A DNA stretch of 64,000 nt from positions 30,800 to 94,799 of the forward strand of contig NZ_RQVS01000003.1 of the NCBI RefSeq assembly GCF_003865375.1, written 5' to 3'. A model generated the notes under the pieces. It was not told the origin of the DNA and did no database searches. It was given only the letters and a program-made list of their open reading frames with translations. Made by a program: the position numbers and the translations under genes. Source of the DNA: Gulosibacter macacae. GTDB taxonomy: Bacteria > Actinomycetota > Actinomycetes > Actinomycetales > Microbacteriaceae. This document shows positions 21,507-64,000 of the stretch, one piece after another (positions within the stretch are counted from its first letter, which is position 1; each line of letters starts with the position of its first letter).

Positions 21507-21642
21507 AGGGCGCTGTTGCACGTTCGCGTCGGTGGCATTCCGGTCGATGGAAAGCCCGAAGGGTCGGACGAAGTACTTCCTCGTCATTGAGACAGTTTGC
21601 TCAGGGCATCAGCTCGTGGGCACGAAGAAAAGGTAACTAGAA

Positions 21643-21951: not shown

Positions 21952-21972
21952 CACCTGAGGAGCTGAGAACTC

Positions 21973-22227: not shown

Positions 22228-22266
22228 CCGGAAGACCGGGTTCATCCCGGAATCGACTTCACGAAG

Positions 22267-22294
22267 AGGGGCGGACAAGATCCGCCCCTTTTCG
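22267..22294 (+). terminator. Rho-independent terminator or attenuator between rpmA and obgE
   Basis: A nine-base-pair stem (AGGGGCGGA with TCCGCCCCT) with a five-base loop is followed by TTTTCG. It should reduce or end transcription after rpmA, while obgE begins only about 30 bases later and may be expressed by read-through. Confidence 0.75.
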
Positions 22295-22320
22295 CGTATC
22301 ACCACGAGGAGAGGACTGAC

Positions 22321-23832: not shown

Positions 23833-24029
23833 CCGTGTAGTGCATCTGATAATCATTCGCAATATGCATTTTTGGGCAGTATGGAAATATAGTCACAGTC
23901 TGAGAGCTTGGTGGGGATCATCGCGGAAGCTCCAACAATGGACGTTGTTTAGCCGGCGGGGGTAGGGTTAGTAATCGGTAGCGCGGCCATTGGCCGGAAT
24001 GCAAAAACGATTCATCAAGGTGACAACAA
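23833..24029. other. AT-rich intergenic region with operator-like sequence
   Basis: This 197-base region is clearly more AT-rich than its surroundings. It contains an imperfect dyad, TGATAATCATTCGCA at 23847-23861, resembling Fur/Zur-family boxes, and CAAGGTGA before the TetR GTG start. No gene was found. The role of the dyad is not supported by a neighbouring metal gene. Confidence 0.35.
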
Positions 24030-26915: not shown

Positions 26916-28730
26916 TCAGCGATTTGCACCCACCCAGAGATCCGCGCTATGCTCTTCAAGTTGCTTAAAGCACGGGGCTATGGCGCAGCTGGTAGCGCAC
27001 CTGCATGGCATGCAGGGGGTCAGGGGTTCGAGTCCCCTTAGCTCCACGTAAGATGAGAAAATCGAAACTTGCCCCGCCTGATGGCGGGGCAGTTTTGTTT
27101 CTGCGGTGACGTGGGCCGGGGCATCGATGTTGGTGTGGGCGAGGACGCTGGCGGTGGTCTCGTCGGGGGTGTAGGTGGCGTTCTCTTCGTCGTCGATGGT
27201 GATGCGGGTGAACAGGGCGCGGTTGAGGATGCGTCGTTCGGCGGGTTCGCACTTGTTGTAGAGGTCGTCTAGGTCGACCAGGAGTTCGGTGAGCTGGTCC
27301 AAGCCTGTTCGGGCCTCGGCGTAGGTGTCGGTGAGGTTGTCGAGCCGGGTGGTGATCTGGTCGAGGCTGGCGCGGATGCGGTCTTGTTCGCTTTTGAGGA
27401 GGTCGAGTGGGATCGCGTCGGCGTAGTGGGCTTGGACGAGTTTGAGGCGTTCGGCTTCGAGCTTGTCGCGCTGGGCGGTCAGGAGCTTGCGTTCGTCCTC
27501 GCTGGATCCTTCGAGCTGGTCGAACACGTCGTTGAGCACTTTCCGGACGTGCTCAGCCTGGGCTGGATTCAGGGAGTTGCGCTGGTAGGTGCGTTCGATC
27601 TCGGCTTCGGCGCGTTCGGCGAGGATCGCGGAGCGAGTGCAGTTGGTGGTCTTGCGGCGTCGTCCGGAGCAGGTGAAGTACTCGTAGCGGTCCCCGGCCT
27701 TGTCGCGGGGGCGTTCGATCATGAGCTTGGCTCCGCAGGCGCAGTACAGCGTGCCTTTGAGGTAGTGGTCGTACTTCTGTGGCCGTTCGCCGCGGGCGTT
27801 GTTGGCGTCCAGGTTAGTTTGGACGCGCAGCCAGGTCTCTGCGTCGACGAGGGGCTGGTGGGTGCCGTCGTAGGTGACGCCGCGGAAGGTGACGGTGCCC
27901 TGGTAGTAGGGGTTGGTCAGGATCTTGTGCAGCCCGGTGGTGGTGACCGGTTTGGCCGGCTGCGAAGGGGTGGGCCGGGTGGTCAGGCCGCGGGCTGTGA
28001 GTTCCTTGGCCAGGCGCGACAGGGACCAGTCTCCGGTGGCGTAGGCGGTGAAGGCGAAACGGACGAGGTCGGCGCGTTCGGGGTCGATCTCGATCTCGCG
28101 GGACTCGCGTCCTCGGGCGTCGGTGGTGCGGACGTTGAGGTAGCCCAGAGGCGCTTTGGTGGGGGTGCCGCCGATCGCGGCCTTCTGGGTCATGCCTTTG
28201 AGGACTTCCTGGGCCAGGTTCAGCGAGTAGAACTCGGCCATGGAGGCCAGGATGCCGTGCATGAGCATCCCCGAGGGGGTCTCGTCGATGTTCTCGGTGA
28301 CCGAGACCAAGCTGATGTTCGCATCCCGCAGCGCGGCGTGGATCTTGGCGTCATCGAGCCGGTTGCGGGCGAGGCGATCGACCTTGTTGATGATGCAGTA
28401 CCGCACCGGGTGCGTGGTGGCGTAGTCGAGCATCTCTTGGAGCGCGCGTCGTTGGGCGGTCTTGGCTGACTCGCCGGGCTCGATGAACTCCTTGACGATG
28501 ACCGCACCGAGCTGTTCGGCCTTGCGCTGCGCGGCTTCGCGCTGGGCCGGGATCGACAGGCCCTCTTCCAGCCCGTTGCGGGTGGCCTGATCCTTGGTCG
28601 AGACCCGCAGGTAGCTGATCGCCGCCAGCTTCCCGTCACCCGTAGGCGCTGTGGCGTCTGGGCGTGGTGTGGTGCGGGCGAGCCGTCGAAGGCCTGAGAT
28701 ATCGAGGCCGGAGAGCTGATCGAGTGTCAT
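26916..28730 (-). CDS. Large serine recombinase (element integrase)
   Basis: The 604-residue protein has a resolvase domain (YLRVSTKDQ, catalytic S44), a recombinase domain (about 185-290, ending in LTNPYYQGTV), a zinc ribbon (CACG then CSG...NC, about 338-372) and a long coiled coil (about 385-490). It would excise and insert the element. The last ~45 residues cross the tRNA terminator, tRNA-Ala and chromosomal flank, so the C-terminus depends on the insertion site and the native one may differ. About 36 residues precede the catalytic domain. AAAGG lies before the ATG, and a GCCCCCA hairpin lies in the leader at 28749-28768. Confidence 0.93.
   Translation of the reverse strand: MTLDQLSGLDISGLRRLARTTPRPDATAPTGDGKLAAISYLRVSTKDQATRNGLEEGLSIPAQREAAQRKAEQLGAVIVKEFIEPGESAKTAQRRALQEMLDYATTHPVRYCIINKVDRLARNRLDDAKIHAALRDANISLVSVTENIDETPSGMLMHGILASMAEFYSLNLAQEVLKGMTQKAAIGGTPTKAPLGYLNVRTTDARGRESREIEIDPERADLVRFAFTAYATGDWSLSRLAKELTARGLTTRPTPSQPAKPVTTTGLHKILTNPYYQGTVTFRGVTYDGTHQPLVDAETWLRVQTNLDANNARGERPQKYDHYLKGTLYCACGAKLMIERPRDKAGDRYEYFTCSGRRRKTTNCTRSAILAERAEAEIERTYQRNSLNPAQAEHVRKVLNDVFDQLEGSSEDERKLLTAQRDKLEAERLKLVQAHYADAIPLDLLKSEQDRIRASLDQITTRLDNLTDTYAEARTGLDQLTELLVDLDDLYNKCEPAERRILNRALFTRITIDDEENATYTPDETTASVLAHTNIDAPAHVTAETKLPRHQAGQVSIFSSYVELRGLEPLTPCMPCRCATSCAIAPCFKQLEEHSADLWVGANR
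26974..27046 (+). tRNA. tRNA-Ala (anticodon GGC)
   Basis: A full cloverleaf can be drawn: acceptor GGGGCTA with TAGCTCC, anticodon stem CCTGC/GCAGG with loop ATGGCAT placing anticodon GGC at 27007-27009, and a T arm containing GGTTCGAGTCC. CCA is not encoded. The serine recombinase gene of the mobile element overlaps it on the other strand, marking it as the integration target. Confidence 0.95.
26974..27046. other. Putative left attachment junction (attL) in tRNA-Ala
   Basis: The recombinase reading frame runs across the whole tRNA gene in antisense, giving the sequence RGLEPLTPCMPCR, a tail often seen in integrases of elements inserted in this tRNA. The crossover should therefore be in or just after the tRNA, but the core cannot be fixed without the right end or an empty site. 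Confidence 0.6.
27070..27100 (+). terminator. Terminator of tRNA-Ala, inside the recombinase reading frame
   Basis: TGCCCCGCC and its complement form a nine-base stem with a TGAT loop, followed by GTTTTGTTT on the plus strand. It lies 24 bases after the tRNA and also codes, on the other strand, for recombinase residues near the C-terminus. Confidence 0.8.
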
Positions 28731-29710: not shown

Positions 29711-30160
29711 TCACATGCTGAGGCTGTCGGCGGCCGGTGCGGTTTGCTGCTGCTGGGGTGGTTCGAAGGCCTGCCCAGCCGCCTGGCGTTCGAGTGCGTG
29801 GCGGGGTGTGCGGTCGACGTCGTAGCGGGTGCGGGCGGTGTCGTGGCCGATCTTCTTGGCGACGAACTCTTCGCCGGCGATGCGTTGGCCGTCGCGTTCG
29901 TAGGTGTAGTCGTGGGCGTAGCCTTCGGCGACGAACTGGTCGCCTTTGGTGAAGCGTTCGAAGGCGCGTTCGGCGGTGGCGCGGTAGAGCACGAGGTTGC
30001 CGAAGGAGGGCTCCAGTTTGGTGAAGGTGCCGTCTTCCTCGCGCTGGAAGTTCTCCTGGCCGTAGCGGGCGTAGAAGCGGGCATCGCCGCGTTCGGTGTA
30101 GGTCAGCTGCGGGTCGGATGCGATGAACCCGGACAGGGATTCCTGGGTGCGGATGGCCAT
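29711..30160 (-). CDS. ssb: Single-stranded DNA-binding protein
   Basis: The 149-residue protein has an OB-fold SSB pattern: the N-terminal strand ESLSGFIASDPQLTYTERGDARFYARYG, the middle NLVLYRATAERAFERFTKGDQFVAEGYAHDYTYERDG, and a disordered Gln-rich tail. The canonical acidic DDDIPF tip is absent; the tail ends in ADSLSM. It presumably coats the transferred strand. The first 58 bases overlap the end of the VirD4-like gene. AGGTACC precedes the ATG. Confidence 0.85.
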   Translation of the reverse strand: MAIRTQESLSGFIASDPQLTYTERGDARFYARYGQENFQREEDGTFTKLEPSFGNLVLYRATAERAFERFTKGDQFVAEGYAHDYTYERDGQRIAGEEFVAKKIGHDTARTRYDVDRTPRHALERQAAGQAFEPPQQQQTAPAADSLSM

Positions 30161-32025
30161 GACGCGGTACCTCTCAACTCGTGGACTGCAGCCCGCTCGT
30201 GGTGTGGGGTGCTGGTACCGGTCAGGTGCACCCCGCGACCCCGGTCACGCACGGGGGTCTGCAGGAGCTGTTCCAGTTCGCGGCGGTCGTGTTTGAGGGT
30301 GTCGGCGTCGGGTCGGGTGGGCCAGGCGGTGAGGTCGGTGATGATCGGTGGGGCGGAGCGGAGCAGGGTGACGCCGGTGCCGAAGCGGAGGGTGCGGATG
30401 CGGTCGGGTGGCAGGATCGGCACCCTCCGCACGGAGCGCTGGTTCGACCGGGTGCCGTGGTCACCGAGCGTGATCGAGTCGGTGTATTCGTCGCGTTCCC
30501 CGATGAGGGTGGTGAGGTCTTGGAGGTCGCGACTGTTGGAGGCGCCACCGAGGATGAGTTTCACGATGGCGGCGTCCCAGATCGCTCCGGCTTGGTGTTC
30601 GGACCACTTGTCGCGTGCCTGGGCAAGTGATTGGAGGACGGGCAGGGTGGTGATGCCGGTGCCGCCACCTTCGGCCATCAACGTCGGCAGGGACGGCAGC
30701 GGCGCGAGGTTCCCGATCTCATCTAGGGCGAGCAGCAGGGGTGGGTCGAGACGGGCGCCGGGTGAGCGGGCGGCGAGACGCCGGGCGGTTTCGATGAGGT
30801 CTTCGATGAACGCCGCCACCAACGCCGCGGACGCCCCAGCTCCTGCACCTGTGGCGAGCAGGTAGAGGGTCCCGGACTTGCGCAGGAAGGTCTCGGGGTC
30901 GAAGGGGGTCTCGTTGTCGCGGGGCGTGACTGCGTCGAGGACGCGGGGGTCGGCGAGGGCGCCGAGGGCGAGGGCGACGCCTTGCCAGATGGAGTCGCGG
31001 GTTTTGGGGTCGGCGTCGATCATCGCCCCCAGCGAGTCGGCCCACCCGGCGGCCGCATCTGGGTGGTTGGTGAGGATCGCGACGGCTTCGGCTGCGGCGG
31101 CGGGGTCGAGGGTCCAACGGAACAAGTCCGCCGGCTTTCGAGAGTCCAACGCGGCGGCGTGGAGGAGGGCTTGGAGGGCGGTGCGGGTCTTGCCTTCCCA
31201 GAACCCACCCGATTCGACTCCGCCGGCTGACAAGCCGGTGGCAGAAGCCAGTCCCGTGGCGCGGATCATCGCCGTCAGCGGGTCTTCACAGCCGCGGACG
31301 GGTGACCAGCGCATCCCCGCCGGGAGCCCTTCGGCCAGGTGCTGGGGATCGAACACCGCCACCGGGCCACGACGTTGCCGGGCGCGCAGGGTGGCGGTGA
31401 GGTTGTCGGGGCGCGTGCTGGTGGTGACGACGGGGCCGGGGGCGTCGAGGATGGCGGGGATGACGACGTGCAGTCCTTTGCCGGAGCGGGGCGGGCCGAT
31501 CAGCAGGATCGAGTCCTCCACACTCGCCCACACCCCGACACCCTTCGAGGTCCCGAGCCGATACCCCACCTCACCCGGCTTCGGGTCCTTCAGCGACGGC
31601 CGCAACGTGGATGCCCGTTTCAGGAGAGTTTTGTCGGAGGCGACCTGGGCGACCTCGTGCCGTGTCGCCGTGCCCGCCAACCGATGCGGATCCACCTCCT
31701 GAGCGTGAGAACGGCGCCGCCAGGCGACCCATCCCCAGCCCGCGAGTGCGACCAGCCCGCCCAGAGCGACGATGGTGGTGACCCAATAGGCGACGGGGCT
31801 GAGACCAGGCGCCCCCAACGCGACTGCGGGGTTACCGGGGTTGAACAACACCCCGGCACCGGCGGCCCAGCTCGCTGTCGGTTGCGGTGTTCCGGTGAGG
31901 AACGCGGCGACCGACCCGGCCGCGCGGAGGACGATGGTGAGGAGGAACAAGGCGATGAGGCCGATGAGGGCGGCGTTGGTCAGTTCCTCACCCATCGACC
32001 CACTCTGCCGCTGCGAGGTACTCAT
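30103..32025 (-). CDS. VirD4/TraG-type coupling ATPase
   Basis: The coupling protein joins the relaxase-DNA complex to the secretion channel. Residues 1-130 contain two to three transmembrane helices. The Walker A motif is LLIGPPRSGKG (about 178-188), followed by a TSTRPDNL segment; the Walker B motif is LLALDEIGNLAPLPSLP, and then TTLPVLQSLAQARDKW matches the TraG family. At 640 residues it is of normal size. Start overlaps the upstream gene by ATGA and the end overlaps ssb by 58 bases. It is in the leftward tra operon. Confidence 0.92.
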   Translation of the reverse strand: MSTSQRQSGSMGEELTNAALIGLIALFLLTIVLRAAGSVAAFLTGTPQPTASWAAGAGVLFNPGNPAVALGAPGLSPVAYWVTTIVALGGLVALAGWGWVAWRRRSHAQEVDPHRLAGTATRHEVAQVASDKTLLKRASTLRPSLKDPKPGEVGYRLGTSKGVGVWASVEDSILLIGPPRSGKGLHVVIPAILDAPGPVVTTSTRPDNLTATLRARQRRGPVAVFDPQHLAEGLPAGMRWSPVRGCEDPLTAMIRATGLASATGLSAGGVESGGFWEGKTRTALQALLHAAALDSRKPADLFRWTLDPAAAAEAVAILTNHPDAAAGWADSLGAMIDADPKTRDSIWQGVALALGALADPRVLDAVTPRDNETPFDPETFLRKSGTLYLLATGAGAGASAALVAAFIEDLIETARRLAARSPGARLDPPLLLALDEIGNLAPLPSLPTLMAEGGGTGITTLPVLQSLAQARDKWSEHQAGAIWDAAIVKLILGGASNSRDLQDLTTLIGERDEYTDSITLGDHGTRSNQRSVRRVPILPPDRIRTLRFGTGVTLLRSAPPIITDLTAWPTRPDADTLKHDRRELEQLLQTPVRDRGRGVHLTGTSTPHHERAAVHELRGTASWPSAPRNPCPGSSHPTRS

Positions 32026-52472: not shown

Positions 52473-52580
52473 CCGATCGTGGGTCCTTTCTCCGCGTGGA
52501 GGAAGTCGGCATGTCATGACTGCCGAGACGGCCAAGAAGCAGCCCCCGCCGCAGCATCGTTCTGCGTAGCGCTTATCTCG

Positions 52581-53684: not shown

Positions 53685-53743
53685 GCGCTAAACCTAACAT
53701 AGAATGGATAGCTAACTGAAGCGTGTTTGGTTAGGCTGGTGGG
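53685..53743. promoter_or_regulatory. Divergent promoter/operator between GNAT and TetR genes
   Basis: A 59-base region with short inverted repeats (CCTAAC at 53693 and GTTAGG at 53730, and the palindrome TAGCTA at 53709). TetR-family repressors usually bind such a spot; the half-sites here are short, so exact operator is uncertain. Confidence 0.45.
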
Positions 53744-54340
53744 GTGAGCTACTGGGAACACCGAAAACCTGTGCAACGCCTCCGCGCAGTGGACATCGTG
53801 GAGGTTGCGAGGGCATCGGTGAGGCTGCTGGACGAAGGCGGGTTGAGGGCCCTCACCCTGCGATCTGTGGCGCAACAGGTGGGTGTCGCTCCAGCCAGCC
53901 TGTACTCCCGCGTCGAATCCGTCGACGATCTGTTCGACCTCGCCCTCGACACAGCGCTTGCAGACGATCCCGTGATGTCCGAGTCGATCCGCAACGCCGA
54001 CCTGCCTGCCCTGATGCACGCCTTCTTCGCGCACCTCACGACCCACCGGTGGGCCGGTCAGGTCATCGGTATGCGCGCTCCCAGGGGCCCGGCGTACCTG
54101 GCCCTTTCCGAGCGGATGTGCGTCCTGCTGGAACAAGCGGGTACCCCGGATCCGCTGGGAACTGCCTACCGATTGTCCAACCTGGTGATTGGCGCCTCGC
54201 TGACCGCACCCATGGCGTCTGACGAGAAGCGCGTCGCCATTGACCCTGACCAAGCTCCTACCTATGCGCGGCTACACGCGACGCACCACATCAGCCCACG
54301 CGAGATTCTCTCCGACGGCATCACGGCACTCCTGTCGTGA
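53744..54340 (+). CDS. TetR-family transcriptional regulator
   Basis: The 198-residue protein has the helix-turn-helix at ~residues 22-65 (VRLLDEGGLRALTLRSVAQQVGVAPASLYSRVESVDDLFDLA) and a TetR C-terminal helical domain. GTG 53744 starts it. The C-terminal region fits TetR_C_11-type domains (as in tetracycline repressors), with no recognisable ligand specificity. It is divergent from the double-GNAT gene, which it probably represses, and convergent with the AraC gene, whose end overlaps by 20 bases. Confidence 0.9.
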   Translation: MSYWEHRKPVQRLRAVDIVEVARASVRLLDEGGLRALTLRSVAQQVGVAPASLYSRVESVDDLFDLALDTALADDPVMSESIRNADLPALMHAFFAHLTTHRWAGQVIGMRAPRGPAYLALSERMCVLLEQAGTPDPLGTAYRLSNLVIGASLTAPMASDEKRVAIDPDQAPTYARLHATHHISPREILSDGITALLS

Positions 54341-54800
54341 GGGGGCCTTTTGATTCGGGGCTGCCCTGCGTTGCTGATGGCCACGGGCTGGTCTCCGTGA
54401 GAGTGCGCCCAATCGCAGTGCGCCGATATTCGGACGGGCTGATCCCGACGAAGTCGGTGAACTGCCGTGCGGCATGCCCACGGCTGCGCCACCCGACTTT
54501 TGTCATGGCGACGCCGATTGGAAGATCAGTCTCGACCAGGAGCTCAGCCAGCCGATGGGCCCGAATGTGAGCCAGGTACCGCATGGGCGGCATCCCGAAT
54601 CGTTGTGTGAACGCTCTGCCCAGCTGTGACACCGAGAGGTGAACCAGCGCGGCAAGTTCACGGAGCCGCCAATCCCGTTGAGGTGCTTCTGCGAGCAGCC
54701 GCGCTGCCAGTTCTGTGGATGTTTCACCGGAACGGTGCTCCGTGGCACTCCTAGCTGTTGACGTGTAGCGGCAGGCTTGATGCCGCGCAGCGATGGTCAT
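54321..54800 (-). CDS. HTH-only AraC-family regulator, coupled to erm
   Basis: The 159-residue protein has a leading ~55-residue tail and an AraC double helix-turn-helix (RLRELAALVHLSVSQLGRAFTQRFG, then VAMTKVGWRSRGHAARQFTDFVGISPSEYRR). The sensing domain is absent. Start ATG 54800 overlaps the erm stop (ATGA), preceded by GGAGG, so it is in the erm operon. It resembles the AraC protein after the MFS gene. Its target may be erm or other resistance genes. Its end overlaps the convergent TetR gene. Confidence 0.85.
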   Translation of the reverse strand: MTIAARHQACRYTSTARSATEHRSGETSTELAARLLAEAPQRDWRLRELAALVHLSVSQLGRAFTQRFGMPPMRYLAHIRAHRLAELLVETDLPIGVAMTKVGWRSRGHAARQFTDFVGISPSEYRRTAIGRTLTETSPWPSATQGSPESKGPLTTGVP

Positions 54801-55624
54801 CGACGGCGCCTCCTCGACTTCACCTGCTGCGTCTGCGCACGGTGCGCAGGCGGTGAAGAACCGGTGGTCTTGAACAAGTCCACCCATGCCTCGACGGGCA
54901 TGTCCTTCGGGAGTCCTGCAGCGGTCATGCCGTGGCGTGTCAGCCACGCCTGTGCGGTCTGTGGTGACCCGAGTGAGGTGTTGCGTGCGAGGATCTGGGC
55001 CAGCCCGCGGCCGGGGCCGGTGTAGACGCGGTGGACTAGGGCATGGAACTGGCGTCGCCGTGTCGGGGACAGCAGCGGGTGTTCGCGGCGGTGGATGGTG
55101 AGGATTCCGCCGTCGACGCCCGGACGTGGGGTGAACGCGCGAGCGGGAACACGACTTTGCAGCGTGAACTCGTACCAGGGCGCCCATTGCGCGGTCATCA
55201 ACGTGGCACCGCCGACGCCTGCTCTGCGCCGCGCGACTTCCCATTGCACGAGCACGATGGCATCGGTCCATGCCGGGGAGTGCAGGATGCGGCGCAGTAT
55301 GGCTGTGGTCTGGTGAAACGGCAGGTTGCCGACGAGCACATGCGCAGATGTTGGAAGCCGGTAGGTCAGGAAGTCGTCGGCGACGACCTCCACGTGCGAC
55401 GGGAGACGTTGGGCCAAGCGTTGGGCGAGCCTGGTGTCGATCTCGACGGCAGTCACCGGTCGCCCGAGCTGGGCCAGCGGGGTGGTGAGTGCTCCGTCAC
55501 CGGGGCCGATCTCGATGATCGGGCCCTCGGTGGCAGCCACGAGCCGTGTGATCGTGGCAATGGTGGATGGGTCAGTCAGGAAGTTCTGGCCGTGCTCATG
55601 ACGGCCACCTCGATAGGTAGGCAC
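54797..55624 (-). CDS. erm: 23S rRNA adenine-N6 methyltransferase (Erm, erm(X)-like)
   Basis: Erm methylates A2058 of 23S rRNA, giving resistance to macrolides, lincosamides and streptogramin B. The RHEHGQNFL start, SAM motif IIEIGPGDGALT, AVEID, VVADDFL and the NLPFHQTT catalytic motif are all present and typical; RPGVDGG is also family-like. Length from GTG 55624 is 275 residues, with GGAG seven bases upstream; a longer frame (GTG 55657) lies in the attenuator. It has a basic Arg/Ser tail. The leader peptide MLFYGTASLRLRSR and pairing pattern are those of erm(X). Coupled to an AraC gene downstream. Confidence 0.93.
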   Translation of the reverse strand: MPTYRGGRHEHGQNFLTDPSTIATITRLVAATEGPIIEIGPGDGALTTPLAQLGRPVTAVEIDTRLAQRLAQRLPSHVEVVADDFLTYRLPTSAHVLVGNLPFHQTTAILRRILHSPAWTDAIVLVQWEVARRRAGVGGATLMTAQWAPWYEFTLQSRVPARAFTPRPGVDGGILTIHRREHPLLSPTRRRQFHALVHRVYTGPGRGLAQILARNTSLGSPQTAQAWLTRHGMTAAGLPKDMPVEAWVDLFKTTGSSPPAHRAQTQQVKSRRRRR

Positions 55625-55771
55625 TGTTTGCTCCGTGGTTGTTGCGGAGCCGGGCACGCTGAAAGAGCCGCCCGGCCGTGATCATCGGGTGCGGGAGCAA
55701 CAACCTGTGGAGGGTGCCCGCCGCTGTTAGCGGCTGCGCAGACGCAGCGAAGCAGTGCCGTAGAACAACAT
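55622..55771 (-). promoter_or_regulatory. erm translational attenuator
   Basis: The segment GGTTGTTGCTCC (minus strand, 55694-55705) can pair with GCAACAACC (55637-55645) or with GGAGCAA at the erm ribosome site (55628-55634), which would hide the GGAG. A further hairpin (GCCGCT/AGCGGC, 55720-55734) overlaps the leader stop. Macrolide-stalled ribosomes on the leader should shift the pairing and open the erm ribosome site. Confidence 0.82.
55727..55771 (-). CDS. erm leader peptide (14 aa)
   Basis: An ATG at 55771 opens a 14-codon ORF, MLFYGTASLRLRSR, ending at 55727. It contains the RLR sequence near its end, as in erm(X)-type leaders (MLISGTAFLRLRTNR), which arrest ribosomes in the presence of macrolides. 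It lies about 100 bases before the erm start. The ribosome site before it is weak (GGTGGGC). Confidence 0.85.
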   Translation of the reverse strand: MLFYGTASLRLRSR

Positions 55772-56353: not shown

Positions 56354-59300
56354 TTGACGGTGTCGATGCGGGTGATGTCGGCTGGCGACGGCTACACGTA
56401 CCTGCTGCGCACTGTGGCGGCTGGTGATGGTGACCGGTCGCTGTCGACTCCGTTGACCCGCTACTACGCCGAGGCTGGCACCCCACCTGGACGCTGGCTT
56501 GGTTCCGGTGTCACTGCTTTGGGTAATGGTGAAATCGCCCCTGGAGCGCAGGTGTCGGAGGCGCAGCTTCAGTTGCTGGTGGGGATGGGGCGGGATCCGA
56601 TTACTGGTGTGCCTTTGGGGCGGGCGTATCCGGTGTACAGCTCGACGGCGGAGCGGGTCGCGGACCGTGTCGCGCAGCTGGACCCTGCCCTGGGGGCGGT
56701 GGGGCGGGGGCGGGTCGTTGCGCAGATTGAGGCGGAGGAGGCTGCGCGGGGGTCGCGGCGTGCGGTGGCGGGGTTTGATTTCACGTTCAGTGTGCCGAAG
56801 TCTGCGTCGGTGTTGTGGGCGGTTGCGGACGCGGGGACGCAGGCGTTGATTGCGCAAGCCCATCATGAGGCGGTTGCGGCGGTGGTTGCGTTCATGGAGC
56901 GCGAGGTTGCAGCCACCCGCACGGGCGCAACTGCTGGGGATGGTGCGGTTGCACAGGTCGACGTCACGGGTTTGATCGCGACGGTGTTTGATCACTTTGA
57001 TTCCCGTGCTGGGGACCCGCACTTGCATACGCATGTGGTGATCAGCAACAAGGCCCAAACGGTGTTGGATGGGAAGTGGCGGAGTCTGGATGGGCGTCCG
57101 ATGCATGCCGCGGTTGTCGCGTTGTCGGAGCTGCACGAGGCTGTGTTCGCCGATCACATGACCCGCACCTTCGGCGTGAGCTGGGAGCCGCGGGAGATGG
57201 GCCGGGACCGGAACCCGTCATGGGCGATCACCGACGTCCCCGAGGAACTGGTGGCGGAGTTCTCGACCCGCTCCCGGCACATCAACGAGGCGACCGACGC
57301 GCTGATTGCTGACTACGTGACCCAGCACGGCAGGCGCCCGTCGCCGGCGACCGTCATGAAACTGCGCGCCCAGGCCACGCTCGCGACGCGTCCGGAGAAG
57401 CAGGTCCGATCCTTGGCGGAACTGACGGCCGAGTGGCGCACCCGCGCCAGCAGACTCTTGGGCAGTGATGCGACGGTGTGGGCGCGGACCGTCACCGGCG
57501 GGGACCGTCCGTTGCTGTTGCGGGCTGATGATGTGCCGTTGGATCTGATCGGGCAGGTGGGGCGCTCGGTGGTCGAGGTGGTCGGGGAGAAGCGTTCGAC
57601 GTGGCGGCGCTGGAACCTGATGGCCGAAGCCGCCCGCCAAACGATGGGGTGGCGGTTCGCCACCGTCGAGGACCGCGAAGCCATCACCGCGATGGTCGCC
57701 GACGCCGCCGAACAGGCCTCGCTACGCCTGACCCCACCCGAACTGACCACGAGCCCGGTGGAGTTCCGCCGCCTGGACGGAACCAGCGTGTTCCGGCCGA
57801 AGCACTCGACCGTGTTCTCCTCCGACACCCTCCTCGCCGCCGAAGACCGCCTCCTGCAACGGGCCCGCACCACCACCGGGCCGAGCATCGACCTCGCCAC
57901 CGTCGAAACGATCACGAGCAAGCCTGACGCCGAGGGTCGGGTGCTCGGTCCCGACCAGGCTGAAGCTTTGGCGTCGGTCGCCGTCTCGGGCCGGGTGGTG
58001 GATGTGTTGGTGGGGCCGGCGGGAGCCGGGAAGACAACGGCAATGAATGCGCTGCGCCGGGCATGGGAAACCGAGCATGGCGCCGGGTCTGTGGTGGGGT
58101 TGGCCCCGTCTGCGGTGGCGGCGCAGGTGCTGGCCGACGATCTGGGCATTCAGACGGAGAACACGGCGAAGTGGTGGACCACCTACCAACACACCGGCGC
58201 CACCTTCCAGGCCGGGCAGCTGGTTATCATCGACGAAGCCTCCCTCGCCGGCACCCTCTCCTTGGACCGGATCACGCAGGCAGCGGAGGAGGCGGGGGCG
58301 AAGGTGCTGCTGGTCGGTGACTACGCCCAGCTCCAGTCCGTCGACGCTGGCGGTGCGTTCAGCCTGGTGATCCACGACCGTGACGATGCTCCCGAGCTGG
58401 TCGATGTCCACCGCTTCACGAATGCTTGGGAGAAGACCGCGTCCCTGGAACTACGGCACGGCCGCACCCCGGTCATCGACACCTACCTGGCACGCGATCG
58501 CATCCACGACGGCGACGCCGAGGCCATGACCGATGCCGCCTACACCGCCTGGCGACACGACCGCCAGGCGGGATTGGCGTCGGTGCTGATCGCCGAAACC
58601 CGCGAGAACGTCACCGCCCTCAACGTCCGCGCCCGCGCTGACCTCATCCTGGACGGCACGCTGAAGCCCGGCCCCGAAATCACCCTGTCCGACGGATCGG
58701 CAGCGGGCGTGGGGGACACGATCATCACCCGCCACAACGACCGGCGGCTACGGAACCGGCACGGCTGGATCCGCAACGGCCAAACCTGGACCATCAGCCA
58801 GGTTCGGGGCGATGGGTCGGTCACGATCCGCCCACCCGGGGCCAGGTTCGGAAACAGCATCGTCCTACCCGCCGACTACGTGGCCGAGCACGTCGACCTC
58901 GGCTACGCCGTCACCGCCCACCGCGCCCAAGGCATCACCACCGACACCGCCCACGTCCTCGTCGAACCCACCACCACGCGGGAGAACCTGTACGTCGCGA
59001 TGACGCGCGGACGGGAGTCGAATCAGGCGTACGTCGTCCTCGACCGTCCCGATGATCACGCCACTGCGCATCCGGGTGACAATCCTGACGCCACCGCCCG
59101 CACGGTCCTCTACGGCGTGCTCCAACACAGCGGTGCTGAGCTGTCGGCGCACGAGACCATCACCGCCGAGCAGGACCGGTGGGGCTCGATCGCCCAACTC
59201 GCCGCCGAATACGAAACCATCGCCGCCGCAGCCCAACACGACCGCTGGACCACCCTCATCACCAGCAGTGGCCTGACCACCGACCAAGCAGACGCCGTCA

Positions 59301-59896
59301 TCGACTCCGACGCTTTCGGCGCCCTGACTGCGGAACTGCGCCGAGCCGAAGCCAAGCACCACAACGTCGACACCCTCCTGCCACGCCTCATCAAGGCGCG
59401 CGGGTTCGCCGACGCCGACGACATCGCCTCCGTCATCCACCACCGCCTCGCCAACGCCACCACCCGACCCGCCGGCTCCGGCCGCGCACGACGGGCGCCG
59501 CGTCTCATCGCCGGACTGATCCCCGAAGCCGCCGGCCCCATGACCCCCGACATGCAGCAAGCCCTGACCGAACGCCGCCACCTCATCGAAACCCGAGCAG
59601 AAGCCATCCTCGACACCGCCCTGCAGACGCAAGAACCATGGGCTATGGCACTCGGTCCGATACCCGCCAGTGGGCGGGAGCGGCAGCAGTGGCGACGCCG
59701 CGCTGTGGTTGTCGCCGCCTACCGTGACCGCTACCAGATCACCGACCCCACCCCGCTCGGCACCGAGCCCGAGGGCGCGGCGCAGAGGATCGACCGTGCC
59801 CGGGCCGAAACCGCGCTCCGGACGTTGCCCCGCCCGACCATCCACGACGAGCGTCATCGCCCCGCTGCCCAGGCGACGCGGTACCTCGACCTGTAA
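56354..59896 (+). CDS. MobF relaxase-helicase (TrwC/TraA-type)
   Basis: This 1,180-residue enzyme nicks oriT and unwinds the DNA for transfer. The N-terminal relaxase has catalytic Tyr candidates (Y14 and Y16 and the YYAE pair at 37-38) and the metal-binding histidine triad HxHxH at 223-227 (PHLHTHVV). The helicase domain has Walker A GPAGAGKT at about 554-561, then DEASLAG and a TraA/RecD-like C-terminal motif HRAQGITTD. The TTG start follows AGAGAGGTGG; GTG 56360 is an alternative. The plus-strand gene faces the tra operon and ends at a strong terminator. Confidence 0.93.
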   Translation: MTVSMRVMSAGDGYTYLLRTVAAGDGDRSLSTPLTRYYAEAGTPPGRWLGSGVTALGNGEIAPGAQVSEAQLQLLVGMGRDPITGVPLGRAYPVYSSTAERVADRVAQLDPALGAVGRGRVVAQIEAEEAARGSRRAVAGFDFTFSVPKSASVLWAVADAGTQALIAQAHHEAVAAVVAFMEREVAATRTGATAGDGAVAQVDVTGLIATVFDHFDSRAGDPHLHTHVVISNKAQTVLDGKWRSLDGRPMHAAVVALSELHEAVFADHMTRTFGVSWEPREMGRDRNPSWAITDVPEELVAEFSTRSRHINEATDALIADYVTQHGRRPSPATVMKLRAQATLATRPEKQVRSLAELTAEWRTRASRLLGSDATVWARTVTGGDRPLLLRADDVPLDLIGQVGRSVVEVVGEKRSTWRRWNLMAEAARQTMGWRFATVEDREAITAMVADAAEQASLRLTPPELTTSPVEFRRLDGTSVFRPKHSTVFSSDTLLAAEDRLLQRARTTTGPSIDLATVETITSKPDAEGRVLGPDQAEALASVAVSGRVVDVLVGPAGAGKTTAMNALRRAWETEHGAGSVVGLAPSAVAAQVLADDLGIQTENTAKWWTTYQHTGATFQAGQLVIIDEASLAGTLSLDRITQAAEEAGAKVLLVGDYAQLQSVDAGGAFSLVIHDRDDAPELVDVHRFTNAWEKTASLELRHGRTPVIDTYLARDRIHDGDAEAMTDAAYTAWRHDRQAGLASVLIAETRENVTALNVRARADLILDGTLKPGPEITLSDGSAAGVGDTIITRHNDRRLRNRHGWIRNGQTWTISQVRGDGSVTIRPPGARFGNSIVLPADYVAEHVDLGYAVTAHRAQGITTDTAHVLVEPTTTRENLYVAMTRGRESNQAYVVLDRPDDHATAHPGDNPDATARTVLYGVLQHSGAELSAHETITAEQDRWGSIAQLAAEYETIAAAAQHDRWTTLITSSGLTTDQADAVIDSDAFGALTAELRRAEAKHHNVDTLLPRLIKARGFADADDIASVIHHRLANATTRPAGSGRARRAPRLIAGLIPEAAGPMTPDMQQALTERRHLIETRAEAILDTALQTQEPWAMALGPIPASGRERQQWRRRAVVVAAYRDRYQITDPTPLGTEPEGAAQRIDRARAETALRTLPRPTIHDERHRPAAQATRYLDL

Positions 59897-59962: not shown

Positions 59963-60958
59963 CTAAAGAGATCGCTCCTGCGGTCCAGCCGCCGGCGCCG
60001 TGTGCCGTGTGAACTCGGCTGACAGCCCCGGACAATGGGTTGTGCGGTCGGCGGTGAGTTCTTCGACGTCGGCAGCGGAGGTGACCAGGTGTGCGTGGCC
60101 GGTGCGGAGTAGCTCGTGCGGACCATGACTGGTGGCGCTGGTGACCGGCCCCGGCACTGCACCGACCTGGCGTCCGAGCTGGCGGGCCTCGGACGCCACG
60201 CGCAGTGCCCCCGACCGCGCACCGGCCTCCACGACCACCGTCGCCGCTGACATGGCCCCCAGCAGTCGGGAGCGGGCCAGGAACCGATGCCTCGTCGGCA
60301 CCGCTCCGAGAGGAAGCTCGCTGACCAGCGCACCCACATCACCCACCCGATCCAGCAAGTCACTGTGCCCGCTCGGGTAGGGGCGGTCCACGCCACCGGC
60401 GAGCACCGCGATCGTGTCCCCACCGGCCGCCAATGCCGCGCGGTGCACGGCAGCTTCGACACCATAGGCGCCACCGGCCACCAGCACGCGTTCACGGTTC
60501 GCGAGGTCGGCAGCCAGTTCGCCCGCGACATGCTCCCCATACGCAGAGGCCGCCCGAGACCCCGTGACCGTCACCAGATCGTTCAACGGTCGCGCCAGGA
60601 ACGACGTCGCCCCGCGCACGAAGAGAACATACGGAGCGCGTTCGTCGAGATCATCCAGCGCTCGGGGCCAGTGCGCATCCCCCGGGACCAGAGTGGCGAT
60701 CCCGCTCTCCTCAACCATGCGCAGCCGCTGGTCAAGCCCATCCAGCCTGCCCGGTGAGGTGAGGCGGTCACGCCACACCTGACCATCGACCCGGGCCAAA
60801 CCCGGCACGGTCGTGTCGGTGTCGAGCAGCCCGAGCGTCTCAACGGCACCCACGCGGCGCATCAGCCCACCGGTGACGGGATCATCAGGCTCCGCCAGCA
60901 TGGCCAGCACCACTCGGGCACGACGCTCATCAACACCAAGACCAGTAACACCAGACAT
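59963..60958 (-). CDS. dprA: DprA/Smf-like DNA-processing protein
   Basis: The 331-residue protein has a helical N-terminus and a Rossmann-like DprA domain: PRALDDLDERAPYVLFVRG, VTGSRAASAYGEHVA, GGAYGVEAAVHRAALAAGG, then AVLAGGVDRPYPSGHSDLL and a RFLARSRLLGAMSAATVVVEAGARSGAL core. DprA binds ssDNA and loads RecA. In the usual GxARGID motif the Arg is replaced by Tyr (GAYGVE). GAGGAG precedes the ATG. On an element it may protect or process incoming single strands. It is convergent with the relaxase gene. Confidence 0.85.
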   Translation of the reverse strand: MSGVTGLGVDERRARVVLAMLAEPDDPVTGGLMRRVGAVETLGLLDTDTTVPGLARVDGQVWRDRLTSPGRLDGLDQRLRMVEESGIATLVPGDAHWPRALDDLDERAPYVLFVRGATSFLARPLNDLVTVTGSRAASAYGEHVAGELAADLANRERVLVAGGAYGVEAAVHRAALAAGGDTIAVLAGGVDRPYPSGHSDLLDRVGDVGALVSELPLGAVPTRHRFLARSRLLGAMSAATVVVEAGARSGALRVASEARQLGRQVGAVPGPVTSATSHGPHELLRTGHAHLVTSAADVEELTADRTTHCPGLSAEFTRHTAPAAGPQERSL

Positions 60959-61027: not shown

Positions 61028-61372
61028 TCAGGCCGTGGGCACCGGCGAACGTGACAGCAGGCGCCGGTCGCGACGCTCAGTAGTGCGGGCACGCACCAAC
61101 AGCACCACGCTCACCGGCCCCATGACCAGGAACTTGAACGCGTTCCAGATGCACAGCAGCACCAGCAGGTGGAACCAACCAGGCGCACCGCGGCCGATGA
61201 GAATCGTCAGGATGTTCGCGCCCGCGAGATACGGGATGGCCAGCAACATCGCCGGCACGCCCCACTTCAGCCCCCGCCGCGTGCGGAGCCTGTCCAAGAC
61301 GATGTTGGTCGGCATGTAGCGGTGCAGGAAGTCCCGCGTGTGGATGCTGGCGATCCAGATCAGGCGAAACAT
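61028..61372 (-). CDS. Small membrane protein, conserved in actinobacterial elements
   Basis: The 114-residue product has two or three hydrophobic helices (GVPAMLLAIPYLAGANILTILI and LLVLLCIWNAFKFLVMGPVSVVLLV) and a basic N-terminal and C-terminal rim. I believe it occurs next to conjugation genes in other actinobacterial elements, sometimes annotated as a sulfate permease fragment, but no function is established. ATG 61372 follows GGAGAGG; a GTG two codons upstream is the alternative. It is upstream of dprA on the same strand. Confidence 0.65.
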   Translation of the reverse strand: MFRLIWIASIHTRDFLHRYMPTNIVLDRLRTRRGLKWGVPAMLLAIPYLAGANILTILIGRGAPGWFHLLVLLCIWNAFKFLVMGPVSVVLLVRARTTERRDRRLLSRSPVPTA

Positions 61373-61639
61373 GAGCACAGTCCTCTCCTCGTCACCGGCG
61401 ACAAGGAAACAAGAGGACCACTCCGACCGAAGCCATCAGGTCAACCACCGCATCCAACGGTGGGCCACGCAGGTAGAGGCCGCCTACAGGCAACCATACT
61501 GCCTGGCAGTCGCGAGGGAAGTGAACCCGCCGCTGTCGCGCGGGGACCGGGGTGTCCACGGCGGCGAGGCTCTCTCGGTTCCCGGTGCTCGCCGCTAAGA
61601 TGGAGCAAGGGTAACGGCTAGCGGTTCAAGGAGGCAGAG

Positions 61640-62596
61640 ATGGCGCGTGCTGACCTGCTACTTGACCTCGTCGAAGCGGAGAGACGTGGTGACCGAGACC
61701 GATTTCGCGTTCTCGTCGAAGCTGTAATCGCTGAGGAGCGAGCTAACCAGCATCACCTTGTCGCTGACCGCTTGTCCGAGCTGATTACCACTACTGGGCA
61801 GAGCGCTCCGCGTGACGACCATGCGGCAGCTATGCGCGACCTGATCCAGGAGATCGTTCCTCAACGCCGCTTGGAAGAGCTAGAGCTTGCACCGGTCCCT
61901 CGTCGGGTCGTCGCTGAGTTGATTGAAGAGCAAAAGCGTTCCGAGCTGCTCCGCAGCTACGGAATCGAGCCCCGCAACCGACTCCTGTTGTCTGGTCCGC
62001 CGGGTAACGGCAAGACCAGCGTCGCCGAGGCGATCGCCTCAGAACTGATGCTGCCCTTCTACGTCATCCGTTATGAAGGAGTGGTCTCAAGCTTCTTGGG
62101 CGAAACCGCTGCACGGCTCGACAATGCCTTCGAGTTCGCACGGACGCGCCGTTGCGTCCTGTTTTTCGACGAACTTGACACCATCGCTAAAGAGCGATCG
62201 GACGAGCACGAGACAGGAGAGATCAAGCGCGTGGTCTCGACACTGCTGCTCCAGATCGACCGGCTGCCTCCGCATGTCCTTCTAGTCGGGGCGACAAACC
62301 ACAGCGAGCTTCTCGACCGGGCAGCATGGCGACGCTTCCAGATCCGCGCCGAACTCGAACCACCCAGCCGTGCTCAAGCGACGCGCTTTCTCGAACGCCT
62401 CGCCGCCCGGCTGGGCGGTGATCTCGGATTTGCCCCGCGCACTCTGGCGGACAAACTTGCGGGAGCTAGCTTCTCCGAACTGGAAGAGTTCGCTCTCGAC
62501 GTGCGTCGCAGAGCAGTCCTCGAACTCCCCGACAGCAACCTCCGGAAGATTGTCCAAGAACGTCTGGAGCACAGACGAGATCAGGCAACGGGATGA
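61640..62596 (+). CDS. AAA+ ATPase of an IetAS-like pair
   Basis: The 318-residue protein has an N-terminal helical part (1-110) and an AAA+ domain: Walker A GPPGNGKT (119-126), Walker B VLFFDELD (173-180), sensor 1 GATN (217-220) and an AWRRF arginine pair (231-232). The AAA module resembles IetA, the ATPase of the IetAS anti-phage system. AAGGAGG precedes the ATG. The stop overlaps the protease start as ATGA, so the two are translated together. The pair was first described in a Ti-plasmid maintenance context and later as defence. Confidence 0.85.
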   Translation: MARADLLLDLVEAERRGDRDRFRVLVEAVIAEERANQHHLVADRLSELITTTGQSAPRDDHAAAMRDLIQEIVPQRRLEELELAPVPRRVVAELIEEQKRSELLRSYGIEPRNRLLLSGPPGNGKTSVAEAIASELMLPFYVIRYEGVVSSFLGETAARLDNAFEFARTRRCVLFFDELDTIAKERSDEHETGEIKRVVSTLLLQIDRLPPHVLLVGATNHSELLDRAAWRRFQIRAELEPPSRAQATRFLERLAARLGGDLGFAPRTLADKLAGASFSELEEFALDVRRRAVLELPDSNLRKIVQERLEHRRDQATG

Positions 62597-64000
62597 CGGC
62601 CGAGCCTCGGCCCCTCCTGGCATTCGGGGCACCGAAGGTTGCAGGCCGACCAAAACAAAAGGCACGCGATCTGCCACGCTTGTCCAAACCAACCAGCGGC
62701 AGGCAGGGCGCACGCCTGACACCGCAATTTGGTGAACTGCGCTCGGCGTTCGATGCCGAGCGCGCACGTCTCTCGCCTGACGCGCGGGATGAGGTAGATC
62801 CGGCCTTGGTAGTGGTCTTTGACCTCGCCGGCAGCGTCACGGATTTCCGCAACGCGATTGACAAAGTCGACGGGCTGGAGTTCTTGTCTGAATTGATCGG
62901 GGAGCAATCTGACCCTGACGACGATTTCCACATGGTGGAGTCCAAGAGCGGCCGTACGGACAAGCCCGTTCAGCACTCCCTGTACCTGATGCTGTCGAAC
63001 GCAAGAGCGATTGATCAACTCCGCAGCTTGTTCAAGACTTGGCAAACAGACCCAACAACAAAGTTTGCTCGTGGCCTCGGCAGGTTCAAGACAGCGTTCG
63101 AACAGCTCACCTCAATCAGACGCTGGGGGCCAGAGGATCGCATCCGAGAGACCGGCCTTCGCGAACAGTGGCAAGAGACGCTCGACCTCGTCGGCCAATC
63201 CGTGAGCACTGTGATGGTTGAAATCGAGCTGTGGTACCGCTCCGATGCTAGACAGCGCGCCACCGCGCAAGCGCACGTCGAGCAAGTCATCGCCGACAGT
63301 GGCGGGCGTGTGCTCGATCGCTCTCAGATCGGGGAGATCAGCTACCACGCCCTGCTTGCCGAACTGCCGATTCAACAGGTTCATTCACTGACCACCGAGG
63401 GTGCCGAGTCGATCCAACTGCTGGCCACAGACGAAGTCATGTTTGTCAGCCCGTTCACCCCTATGCACGTCGCACCGCCGACCACGGAAACGAGTATTCA
63501 GTTCGACCTGGAACCCCGAAGAGGTGCCCCTTCTGAGTTGCCTAGGGTCGCCTTGCTGGATGGGTTGCCGTTCGCCAACCATGACGCCCTCGCAGGTCGA
63601 CTGGTAGTCGATGATCCTGATGGTCTTGGCGAGGACTACCCGCTGGCCTCTCGTTACCACGGCACGGCGATGGCGTCCTTGATCATTCATGGAGACCTTG
63701 CCACCCGCAGTGAACCGATCGACCGGCCCCTTTATGTGCGTCCAATCATGCAACCCCACGAGTTCATGTCAGGACACGAACAGACCCTGCCAGACAGGCT
63801 GTTCCCTGACCTGCTACACCGCGCGGTCAAGCGAATCGTTGAAGGTGATGCCGGCCACGACCCTGTCGCACCCAGCGTGCGCGTCATCAACCTCTCCATC
63901 GGGTCCCAAGCACGAGCGCTCGTGAGAAGGATGAGCCCTGTTGGCCGACTACTCGACTGGCTAGCTCACTCCTACAACCTGCTGTTCATCGTCAGCGCTG
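62593..64000 (+). CDS. Subtilisin-like serine protease of the IetAS-like pair (cut by window edge)
   Basis: At least 469 residues are visible; no stop is seen. Residues 1-310 are a charged N-terminal domain of unknown fold. The peptidase S8 domain starts near 315: VALLDGLP with catalytic D323, then YHGTAMASLI with H356, and VINLSIGS and FIVSA before the edge. The catalytic Ser (GTSxAxP) must lie beyond 64000. It overlaps the ATPase gene by ATGA. In IetAS systems a subtilase is paired with an AAA+ ATPase; the likely mode is protease release after infection. Confidence 0.85.
   Translation, partial: MTAEPRPLLAFGAPKVAGRPKQKARDLPRLSKPTSGRQGARLTPQFGELRSAFDAERARLSPDARDEVDPALVVVFDLAGSVTDFRNAIDKVDGLEFLSELIGEQSDPDDDFHMVESKSGRTDKPVQHSLYLMLSNARAIDQLRSLFKTWQTDPTTKFARGLGRFKTAFEQLTSIRRWGPEDRIRETGLREQWQETLDLVGQSVSTVMVEIELWYRSDARQRATAQAHVEQVIADSGGRVLDRSQIGEISYHALLAELPIQQVHSLTTEGAESIQLLATDEVMFVSPFTPMHVAPPTTETSIQFDLEPRRGAPSELPRVALLDGLPFANHDALAGRLVVDDPDGLGEDYPLASRYHGTAMASLIIHGDLATRSEPIDRPLYVRPIMQPHEFMSGHEQTLPDRLFPDLLHRAVKRIVEGDAGHDPVAPSVRVINLSIGSQARALVRRMSPVGRLLDWLAHSYNLLFIVSA

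What the first reader, a model, noticed from the sequence alone, without database searches (positions are those of the whole stretch)
61640..64000. IetAS-like AAA+ ATPase and subtilase pair on a conjugative element
An AAA+ ATPase gene overlaps a subtilisin-like protease gene (ATGA). The ATPase has intact Walker A, Walker B and sensor 1 motifs; the protease shows catalytic Asp and His before the window edge. The only system I know with this two-gene form is IetAS. It sits beside dprA and the relaxase, on an element with erm. The protease carries a large charged N-terminal part I do not recognise, which may be the sensor. Substrate and trigger are unknown in the family.
Basis: partly seen in the sequence, partly recalled or inferred. 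Interest (0 to 1): 0.75.

Follow-up and report, generated by a model that had tools for sequence, protein, structure and literature searches.

The report
Protease-ATPase toxin-antitoxin pair on mobile element
Two overlapping genes at the end of a mobile DNA element in an actinobacterium encode a protein-cutting enzyme and the ATPase that probably restrains it, a known kind of addiction and defence module that likely helps keep the element in its host.

Summary
IetA (61640-62596) and IetS (62593 to 65211, past the window edge) overlap by ATGA. Both match PADLOC IetA/IetS models very strongly, but NCBIfam's IteA/IteS anti-phage equivalogs only far below cut-off: a divergent subfamily in which I know of no bench-tested member. 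The pair is the last cargo of a 38.7-kb conjugative-type element (27039-65742) at tRNA-Ala with a MOBF relaxase, transfer genes and an Erm-type gene. Best reading: an element-maintenance toxin-antitoxin, possibly also anti-phage. ICE-borne IetAS is already in print. The 'sensor' idea is untested. A side finding may be more novel: the element's serine integrase gene contains its own attachment site, so integration swaps its C-terminal helix-turn-helix-like tail for tRNA-antisense sequence; one review calls self-disrupting recombinases exclusively archaeal.

The parts
61596..61601 (+). -10-like hexamer TAAGAT, 38 bp before the IetA start
   Evidence: TA[AG][ACG]NT within -55..-29 of IetA in 35 of 36 loci (window included) against 6.1% of shuffles and 13 of 919 other upstream windows; the pattern was chosen after looking at the alignment and the loci are related, so this is not a probability
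61628..61634 (+). ribosome-binding site AAGGAGG of ietA
61640..62596 (+). ietA, AAA+ ATPase, 318 aa; probable antitoxin / control subunit
   Evidence: PADLOC PDLC04232 1.1e-145; Pfam AAA; motifs
62593..64000 (+). ietS, S8 subtilase, window part (residues 1-469 of 872); the gene continues to coordinate 65211 in the same contig
   Evidence: PADLOC PDLC04233; full ORF L002:3393-6011
59963..60958 (-). DprA-like gene, element neighbour
   Evidence: Pfam DNA_processg_A 1.6e-55; TIGR00732 182.3, just under its cut-off 191; PADLOC ShosA 1.1e-41
61028..61378 (-). 116-aa probable membrane ORF, found with dprA in related elements
   Evidence: no Pfam, PADLOC, NCBIfam or PHROGs hit
56354..59896 (+). MOBF relaxase-helicase
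   Evidence: Pfam TrwC 5.6e-91; NCBIfam MobF 234 vs 100
54797..55657 (-). Erm-type 23S rRNA methyltransferase
   Evidence: NF000499 271 vs cut-off 212
30103..32025 (-). VirD4/TraG coupling protein of the element
   Evidence: Pfam TraG-D_C 3.9e-25
26916..28730 (-). large serine integrase; ORF crosses the left end of the element into tRNA-Ala
   Evidence: Pfam Resolvase and Recombinase; PHROG 95 integrase 3e-96; frame
26974..27047 (+). tRNA-Ala(GGC); its last 9 bases (27039-27047, TAGCTCCAC) are the proposed left att core
   Evidence: ARAGORN; homology stops at 27047 in 7 of 10 other genomes of the genus; right core TAGGTCCAC at coordinates 65734-65742, outside the window

Best explanation
A member of a divergent subfamily of IetAS (sgiAT-like) two-gene toxin-antitoxin systems, carried as end cargo of an integrated conjugative-type element. 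IetS is an intracellular subtilase that harms the cell when free; IetA, a single-domain CDC48-like AAA+ ATPase whose gene comes first in the operon behind its own promoter, binds and restrains or remodels IetS. If the element is excised and lost, or another event disturbs the balance, IetS is released and cleaves cell proteins, so cells keeping the element are favoured; the same release could abort a phage infection. Shown here: gene identity, catalytic and ATPase residues, overlap, a recurrent -10-like box, purifying selection, position inside the element, and spread across families. Inferred from experiments on relatives: toxicity and neutralisation. Not shown by anything seen: the substrate, the trigger, direct IetA-IetS binding.
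For: PADLOC IetA/IetS. 4-bp overlap in 33 of the 35 loci that hold IetA. Walker A in 35 of 35 and GATN in 34 of 35 IetA; Asp, His, Asn and Ser invariant in the 26 aligned IetS. Median pairwise dN/dS 0.038 (IetA) and 0.112 (IetS), 32 sequences (dS near saturation). -10-like box in 35 of 36. No export-type hydrophobic segment in IetS. IetS tblastn matches on 98 of 72,556 plasmid records, 60 of them over at least 80% of the protein, and on 0 of 50,697 phage records. Inside the element: similarity to L036, L037 and L065 ends at 65742-65745. Corynebacterium mucifaciens (L038) keeps both genes in a remnant at tRNA-Ala where relaxase, transfer genes of my panel and all but 49 codons of the integrase have no match in the 18.6 kb held. 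IetS is damaged with IetA intact in 3 of 35 loci (L047, L061, L062), the reverse in 0. Relatives: sgiAT is a functional TA (protease toxin) and keeps SGI1 in its host when it can be excised (PMC5006074, abstract and section 4); mycoplasma pair, loss of the ATPase alone lethal (PMC6755753, PMC8562856, passages).
Against: No experiment on this subfamily was found. Databases label the family anti-phage, and PHROGs holds virus-derived relatives (phrog_3964 5.3e-52, phrog_3757 6.7e-77), so it is not purely plasmid or ICE cargo. The 3-to-0 decay asymmetry is not significant (two-sided sign test 0.25, by hand), and L061 or L062 could be sequencing errors. IetA is more conserved than IetS, unlike the usual fast-changing antitoxin; a defensome survey reports positive selection in parts of ietA, AAA+ domain included (PMC10924106, passage). 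sgiAT showed no post-segregational killing from its own promoter.
Confidence: 0.65

Rival explanations
1. Primarily an anti-phage abortive-infection system: IetA or the IetS N-terminal part senses a phage product and switches the protease on, protecting the element's host.
For: PADLOC and NCBIfam class the family as anti-phage; it is counted as a defence system in hotspot and survey papers (PMC12629846, PMC9958689, PMC12755874, PMC12479173, passages); the first plating screen (Gao et al. 2020) is recalled, not read. Residues 1-160 lie outside the match of the other eight IetS models or families hit. Variability is uneven on a fine scale: 25-residue windows range from 0.50 (476-500) to 0.87.
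Against: Far below the NCBIfam anti-phage equivalog cut-offs. No large fast-evolving segment of IetS (0.72-0.78 in all eight regions; the 0.50 window lies in the protease part, not the N-terminus). Little defence company: of 8 other element ORFs scanned with PADLOC, dprA hits ShosA and PsyrA models and two others give weak hits (a ninth ORF scanned, 21637-23862, lies outside the element); the remaining element ORFs were not scanned.
Confidence: 0.25
2. A conjugation-linked or entry-exclusion module: the pair acts with the MOBF relaxase during transfer, for example killing recipients that lose the element or donors holding a rival element.
For: Relaxase match on the same strand upstream in 17 of 36 loci, about 205-2303 bp from IetA; pTiC58 ietAS is titled a stability and incompatibility system (title seen through citations).
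Against: The 8 rows with a 205-231 bp gap form one clade of close sequences; 12 of the 26 loci with at least 4 kb upstream show no relaxase there; the pair has its own -10-like box.
Confidence: 0.07
3. A housekeeping AAA+/protease pair or decayed cargo with no present function.
For: The AAA+ domain resembles CDC48/PAN; IetS is damaged in 3 of 35 loci.
Against: IetS model matches in 0 of 14 control genomes and 11 of 396 genomes of the order, the window's own included; purifying selection; motifs intact.
Confidence: 0.03

Closest known systems
sgiAT of Salmonella genomic island 1 (PMC5006074)
   Same: AAA-ATPase antitoxin gene before subtilase toxin gene, on an integrative mobile element with resistance genes; ATPase better conserved than protease (50% vs 36% to pTiC58 there; 93% vs 79-82% mean column identity here)
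   Different: SGI1 sits in trmE and needs an IncA/C helper; here a serine integrase at tRNA-Ala with transfer genes on the element. sgiAT was not compared by sequence here
ietAS of Ti plasmid pTiC58 (Yamamoto 2009; not held, seen through citations)
   Same: Founding pair: AAA-ATPase and serine protease, plasmid stability and incompatibility
   Different: Its sequence was not fetched or identified here; the two Agrobacterium plasmid matches listed (of 3 counted) are weak, 23% from residue 132 and 30% from residue 366
IteA/IteS anti-phage equivalogs (NF042959, NF042956)
   Same: Same two domains; hits 1.3e-60 and 4.6e-21
   Different: 205.5 vs cut-off 510 and 74.8 vs 900; N-terminal 173 residues of IetS not matched
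Plasmid pairs annotated S8 peptidase / ATP-binding protein in Rhizobium, Bradyrhizobium, Paracoccus and others
   Same: IetS relatives of about 28-35% identity over most of its length, many with an adjacent ATPase annotated
   Different: Proteobacterial plasmids; no function known to me
Mycoplasma AAA-ATPase/subtilase TA (PMC6755753, PMC8562856)
   Same: Two-gene operon; ATPase loss alone lethal; protease toxic
   Different: Chromosomal in mycoplasmas; not compared by sequence here

Membership tests
IetAS as modelled by PADLOC | IetA model match | tested here: met
   PDLC04232 1.1e-145, 483 bits, residues 1-316
IetAS as modelled by PADLOC | IetS model match over full length | tested here: met
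   PDLC04233 E=0, 1070 bits, residues 1-865
IetAS as modelled by PADLOC | adjacent genes, ATPase first | tested here: met
   ATGA overlap; 4-bp overlap in 33 of 35 loci
IetAS as modelled by PADLOC | complete subtilase active site | tested here: met
   D323, H356, N471, S619; invariant in 26 aligned sequences
NCBIfam IteA/IteS anti-phage equivalogs | score above curated cut-off | tested here: not met
   205.5 vs 510 and 74.8 vs 900; so not filed as these equivalogs
Type II toxin-antitoxin (IetAS/sgiAT kind) | protease toxic alone, neutralised by the ATPase | not testable with these tools
   needs expression; shown for relatives
Type II toxin-antitoxin (IetAS/sgiAT kind) | antitoxin gene upstream and overlapping the toxin gene | tested here: met
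   order and overlap; -10-like box; the transcript itself not tested
Anti-phage defence system | reduces phage plating | not testable with these tools
   needs plating
ShosTA (considered for the neighbouring dprA) | ShosT partner beside ShosA | tested here: inconclusive
   dprA matches ShosA 1.1e-41; the neighbours 61028-61378 and IetA match no ShosT model; the relaxase on the other side was not scanned with PADLOC

The most novel reading that the evidence does not exclude
The element belongs to a bacterial family of self-splitting serine-integrase elements: attP lies inside the integrase gene, so integration at tRNA-Ala replaces the enzyme's C-terminal helix-turn-helix-like tail by a tRNA-antisense tail and leaves the old tail at the far end, 102 bp past ietS. 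The swap would act as a built-in direction switch, and IetAS, beside that end in several such elements, as the lock that punishes loss after excision. The split layout is well supported; the switch and the coupling to IetAS are conjecture, and of 23 genomes with a tail match only 4 (one an IetS fragment) are among the IetS-positive genomes.
Probability: 0.3. Interest if true: 0.7.

Novelty: new member of a known kind. Interest (0 to 1): 0.35.

Why it matters
It places IetAS in an actinobacterial clade that has moved between families on elements of this kind, one of them erm-bearing, and that persists in a stripped remnant element, as a maintenance module would. It gives a clean place to ask whether the 'anti-phage' and 'toxin-antitoxin' labels of this family describe one mechanism. 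The self-splitting serine integrase, if confirmed, would extend to bacteria and to serine recombinases a layout that a 2021 review (PMC8371274, passages) calls exclusively archaeal.

Tried and rejected
Housekeeping FtsH/PAN/CDC48-type reading rejected: those are the nearest solved structures of the AAA+ domain but score below NCBIfam cut-offs. ShosTA was considered for dprA and no ShosT was seen in what was scanned. A hypervariable sensor in IetS was looked for; no large one was found, though one 25-residue window in the protease part (476-500) falls to 0.50 identity. Homologues in viral contigs: none (no pattern match, 67 pattern matches, none confirmed). IetS fold by sequence: single-sequence search 0 hits at 0.01; profile search only two weak subtilase hits, best E 0.087. 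A first search for direct repeats of 18 bases or more between the element's ends found nothing; the 9-base core with one mismatch came from relatives. IetA model PDLC04232 at 1e-30 rings in 11 of 14 controls, so only the 7 genomes at 1e-137 or better were used; all 7 also carry IetS. One search flagged one TGA in the IetA match of G051; its frame is open for 335 codons and the aligned part holds no stop. No conserved operator upstream of IetA was noticed beyond the -10-like box (by eye). Consensus promoter/terminator scan uninformative. Tail homologues on plasmids: none. No tRNA lies in the 28 tail loci, so those do not show tRNA use.
Full report
Observation. Searches confirm two + strand ORFs, 61640-62596 (318 aa) and one from 62593 that is open at the window edge, overlapping by ATGA. 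The window is G000:C23:30800-94799. The next stretch of the contig (L002) completes the second ORF: 872 aa, stop at window coordinate 65211. The catalytic residues, by motif, are Asp323, His356, Asn471 and Ser619.

Identity. PADLOC: IetA PDLC04232 1.1e-145 and IetS PDLC04233 8.1e-181 on the window part, E=0 with 1070 bits on full IetS. Pfam: AAA and Peptidase_S8 1.3e-10. NCBIfam's IteA and IteS anti-phage equivalogs are hit at 1.3e-60 and 4.6e-21 but score 205.5 against a cut-off of 510 and 74.8 against 900. So this is the IetAS family in PADLOC's sense, in a subfamily apart from the curated equivalogs. PDLC04233 and PDLC04234 match from residues 1 and 6; the other eight models or families hit (six PADLOC, NF042956, phrog_3964) start at residue 161 or later. 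The first 160 residues are thus specific to this subfamily, which is not only actinobacterial: plasmids of Paracoccus, Shewanella, Rhizobium, Bradyrhizobium and others match at about 28-35% identity, many from the first residues. That fits a structural or IetA-binding part at least as well as a sensor.

Relatives. One scan of genome contigs gave 33 loci, and three of the 98 plasmid records with a match were opened: 36 loci (L033-L068). IetA is found in 35 of them (L065 starts inside IetS). Overlap of 4 bp in 33 of 35. IetA is 318 or 321 aa, with Walker A in 35 and GATN in 34 of 35. IetS is damaged in three: L047 has an IS481-like insertion at its start (named by eye), L061 a frame break after 63 residues, L062 a shortened protein without the Asp and His motifs. 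No locus has damaged IetA with intact IetS. Three against none is in the direction expected if free IetS is toxic, but is not significant. Of 19 further loci from 396 order-level and 396 phylum-level genomes, 18 have IetA beside IetS with no stop inside the aligned parts (two of the IetA cut by an edge), and L015 is only an IetS C-terminal fragment; L005 and L007 are the same genomes as L037 and L060. IetA mean column identity is 93% and IetS 79-82%; median dN/dS is 0.038 and 0.112 over 32 sequences (L043, L047, L061, L062 and L065 left out; dS near saturation).

Mobility. The IetS tree (34 rows) mixes families: the window's protein is nearest [Zimmermannella] alba, Helcobacillus massiliensis (Dermabacteraceae), Corynebacterium mucifaciens (Corynebacteriaceae) and Rothia nasisuis (Micrococcaceae), at 92-100% identity. 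By tblastn IetS matches 98 of 72,556 plasmid records, 60 of them over at least 80% of its length (the weak partial ones may be other S8 proteases), and 0 of 50,697 phage records; more distant virus-derived relatives exist in PHROGs. In 396 genomes of the order 11, the window's own included, hit the IetS model at 1e-20 or better, with 0 of 14 controls.

The element. Left end: tRNA-Ala(GGC) 26974-27047; homology to the left flank stops at 27047 in 7 of 10 other genomes of the genus, and a few bases before or after in the other 3. Right end: similarity to L036, L037 and L065 stops at 65742-65745. Another genome of the genus (G405, L017) has the right end joined to left-end sequence. The cores are TAGCTCCAC (27039-27047) and TAGGTCCAC (65734-65742). 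Between them: serine integrase (26916-28730), VirD4/TraG, an SCO6880-family gene (472 vs 60) and weaker VirB4-like (64 vs 325) and SCO6881-like (126 vs 325) matches, ArdC-like, Prim-Pol, MFS, GNAT and AraC genes, Erm-type methyltransferase (NF000499 271 vs 212), MOBF relaxase, dprA, and IetAS last. Whether it still transfers is not known. In C. mucifaciens (L038) a remnant holds two tRNA-Ala genes, the left end, the GNAT region and intact IetAS; the relaxase, the transfer genes of my panel, and all but 49 codons of the integrase find no match in the 18.6 kb held. The relaxase lies upstream on the same strand in 17 of 36 loci, in 14 of the 26 with at least 4 kb upstream held; eight of the 17 are one close clade. 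Similarity between loci in different contexts mostly begins within about 20 bp of the ietA start, but a -10-like hexamer recurs at nearly the same spacing in 35 of 36 (window included) against 6.1% of shuffles and 13 of 919 other upstream windows (pattern chosen after seeing the sequences). The pair looks like a cassette with its own promoter.

Mechanism. The literature seen supports a toxin-antitoxin. PMC5006074 (abstract and section 4 read, other passages): sgiAT of SGI1, related to pTiC58 ietAS, cuts transformation 100- to 1000-fold when the protease is induced, the ATPase cancels this, and the pair is critical for keeping SGI1 when an IncA/C plasmid is present; no post-segregational killing was seen from its own promoter. 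PMC6755753 and PMC8562856 (passages): the mycoplasma pair, where knocking out the ATPase alone is lethal and the double knockout is viable. Yamamoto 2009 on pTiC58 is not held and is known here only through citations. Survey papers list ietAS among defence systems (PMC12629846, PMC12479173; passages), two of them saying that its mechanism is not yet described or fully elucidated (PMC9958689, PMC12755874); PMC9958689 ties it to an ICE integrase in 91% of cases. PMC10924106 (passages) reports positive selection in parts of ietA, which my pairwise averages would not show. I rank element maintenance by toxin-antitoxin first (0.65), phage defence as the main role second (0.25). Substrate and trigger stay unknown. 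Literature searches on IetAS: 23 of 23 listed; 40 of 831; 13 of 13; 2 of 2; 12 of 28; 4 of 4.

Side finding. The integrase ORF crosses the left core at codon 562, codon position 1; its last 43 codons are the core, tRNA-Ala antisense and flank. At the right end an open frame starting at the core, also codon position 1, encodes 142 residues with weak helix-turn-helix matches (HTH_58 1.2e-5), ending 102 bp from the IetS stop. In three other genomes the integrase C-terminus runs naturally through the core into such a tail: Brevibacterium sp. CS2 (L060), G405 (L017) and G072 (L116, L137); in all three the integrase N-terminus is missing or cut off. A more distant integrase in the IetAS-bearing Aeromicrobium locus L053 is whole (787 aa stop to stop); its C-terminus looks helix-turn-helix-like by eye but gave no tail match at 1e-8. 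G402 (L108) shows the split state again at tRNA-Ala(CGC): the match to codons 254-561 ends at the base next to the tRNA, and a tail match lies 13.3 kb away. Tail matches occur in 23 of 386 genomes of the order, some at 31-40% identity that may be other helix-turn-helix proteins; of 28 tail loci read (two pairs overlap), an integrase match adjoins the tail in 3 (L116, L118, and L133 with the frame broken). Four of the 23 genomes (G000, G265, G301, and G086 with only an IetS fragment) are among the 11 IetS-positive ones, so IetAS is optional cargo. [quoted passage not shown] Searches (12 of 192 listed; 6 of 6; 1 of 1; none) listed no paper that, from title and start of abstract, describes a serine-integrase case; apart from PMC8371274 these papers were not opened, so this is a limited search. 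Unlike the archaeal case, the catalytic part here stays whole in the integrated state.

Verdict. A real, intact, well-conserved IetAS; the family and its presence on ICEs are known. New member of a known kind, interest 0.35, with a side finding that may deserve its own study.

Noticed in passing
window 26916-28730 (-), 26974-27047, and L002:6114-6542 (= window coordinates 65314-65742): attP appears to lie inside the serine integrase gene: integration swaps a 142-aa helix-turn-helix-like tail for 43 codons of core, tRNA-Ala antisense and flank. Natural contiguous integrase-tail copies in L060, L017 and L137; split state also in L108.
   Followed up: partly
L038:4303-11055 (Corynebacterium mucifaciens): A stripped remnant of the element between tRNA-Ala and near the right end: left end, GNAT region and intact IetAS kept; relaxase and most of the integrase not found in the 18.6 kb held.
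   Followed up: partly
L002:6641-7465 (just outside the right end): An APH(6)/hydroxyurea-kinase-family gene (Pfam 1.8e-75) directly beyond the right end; the flank from the core to L002:7500 is not found in the other 10 genomes of the genus except one short weak match, so it may belong to another inserted stretch.
   Followed up: no
window 61028-61378 (-): A 116-aa probable membrane ORF of unknown family, found next to dprA in many related elements, in some with IetAS between the relaxase and this pair.
   Followed up: partly
L047:5966-8001 (Microbacterium lacticum): An IS481-like insertion (named by eye) separates ietS from its start and from ietA, while ietA stays intact.
   Followed up: partly
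window 51054-55657 (-): An MFS efflux-like gene, an ORF with GNAT acetyltransferase domains, an AraC-type regulator and the Erm-type gene lie together as one cargo block.
   Followed up: no
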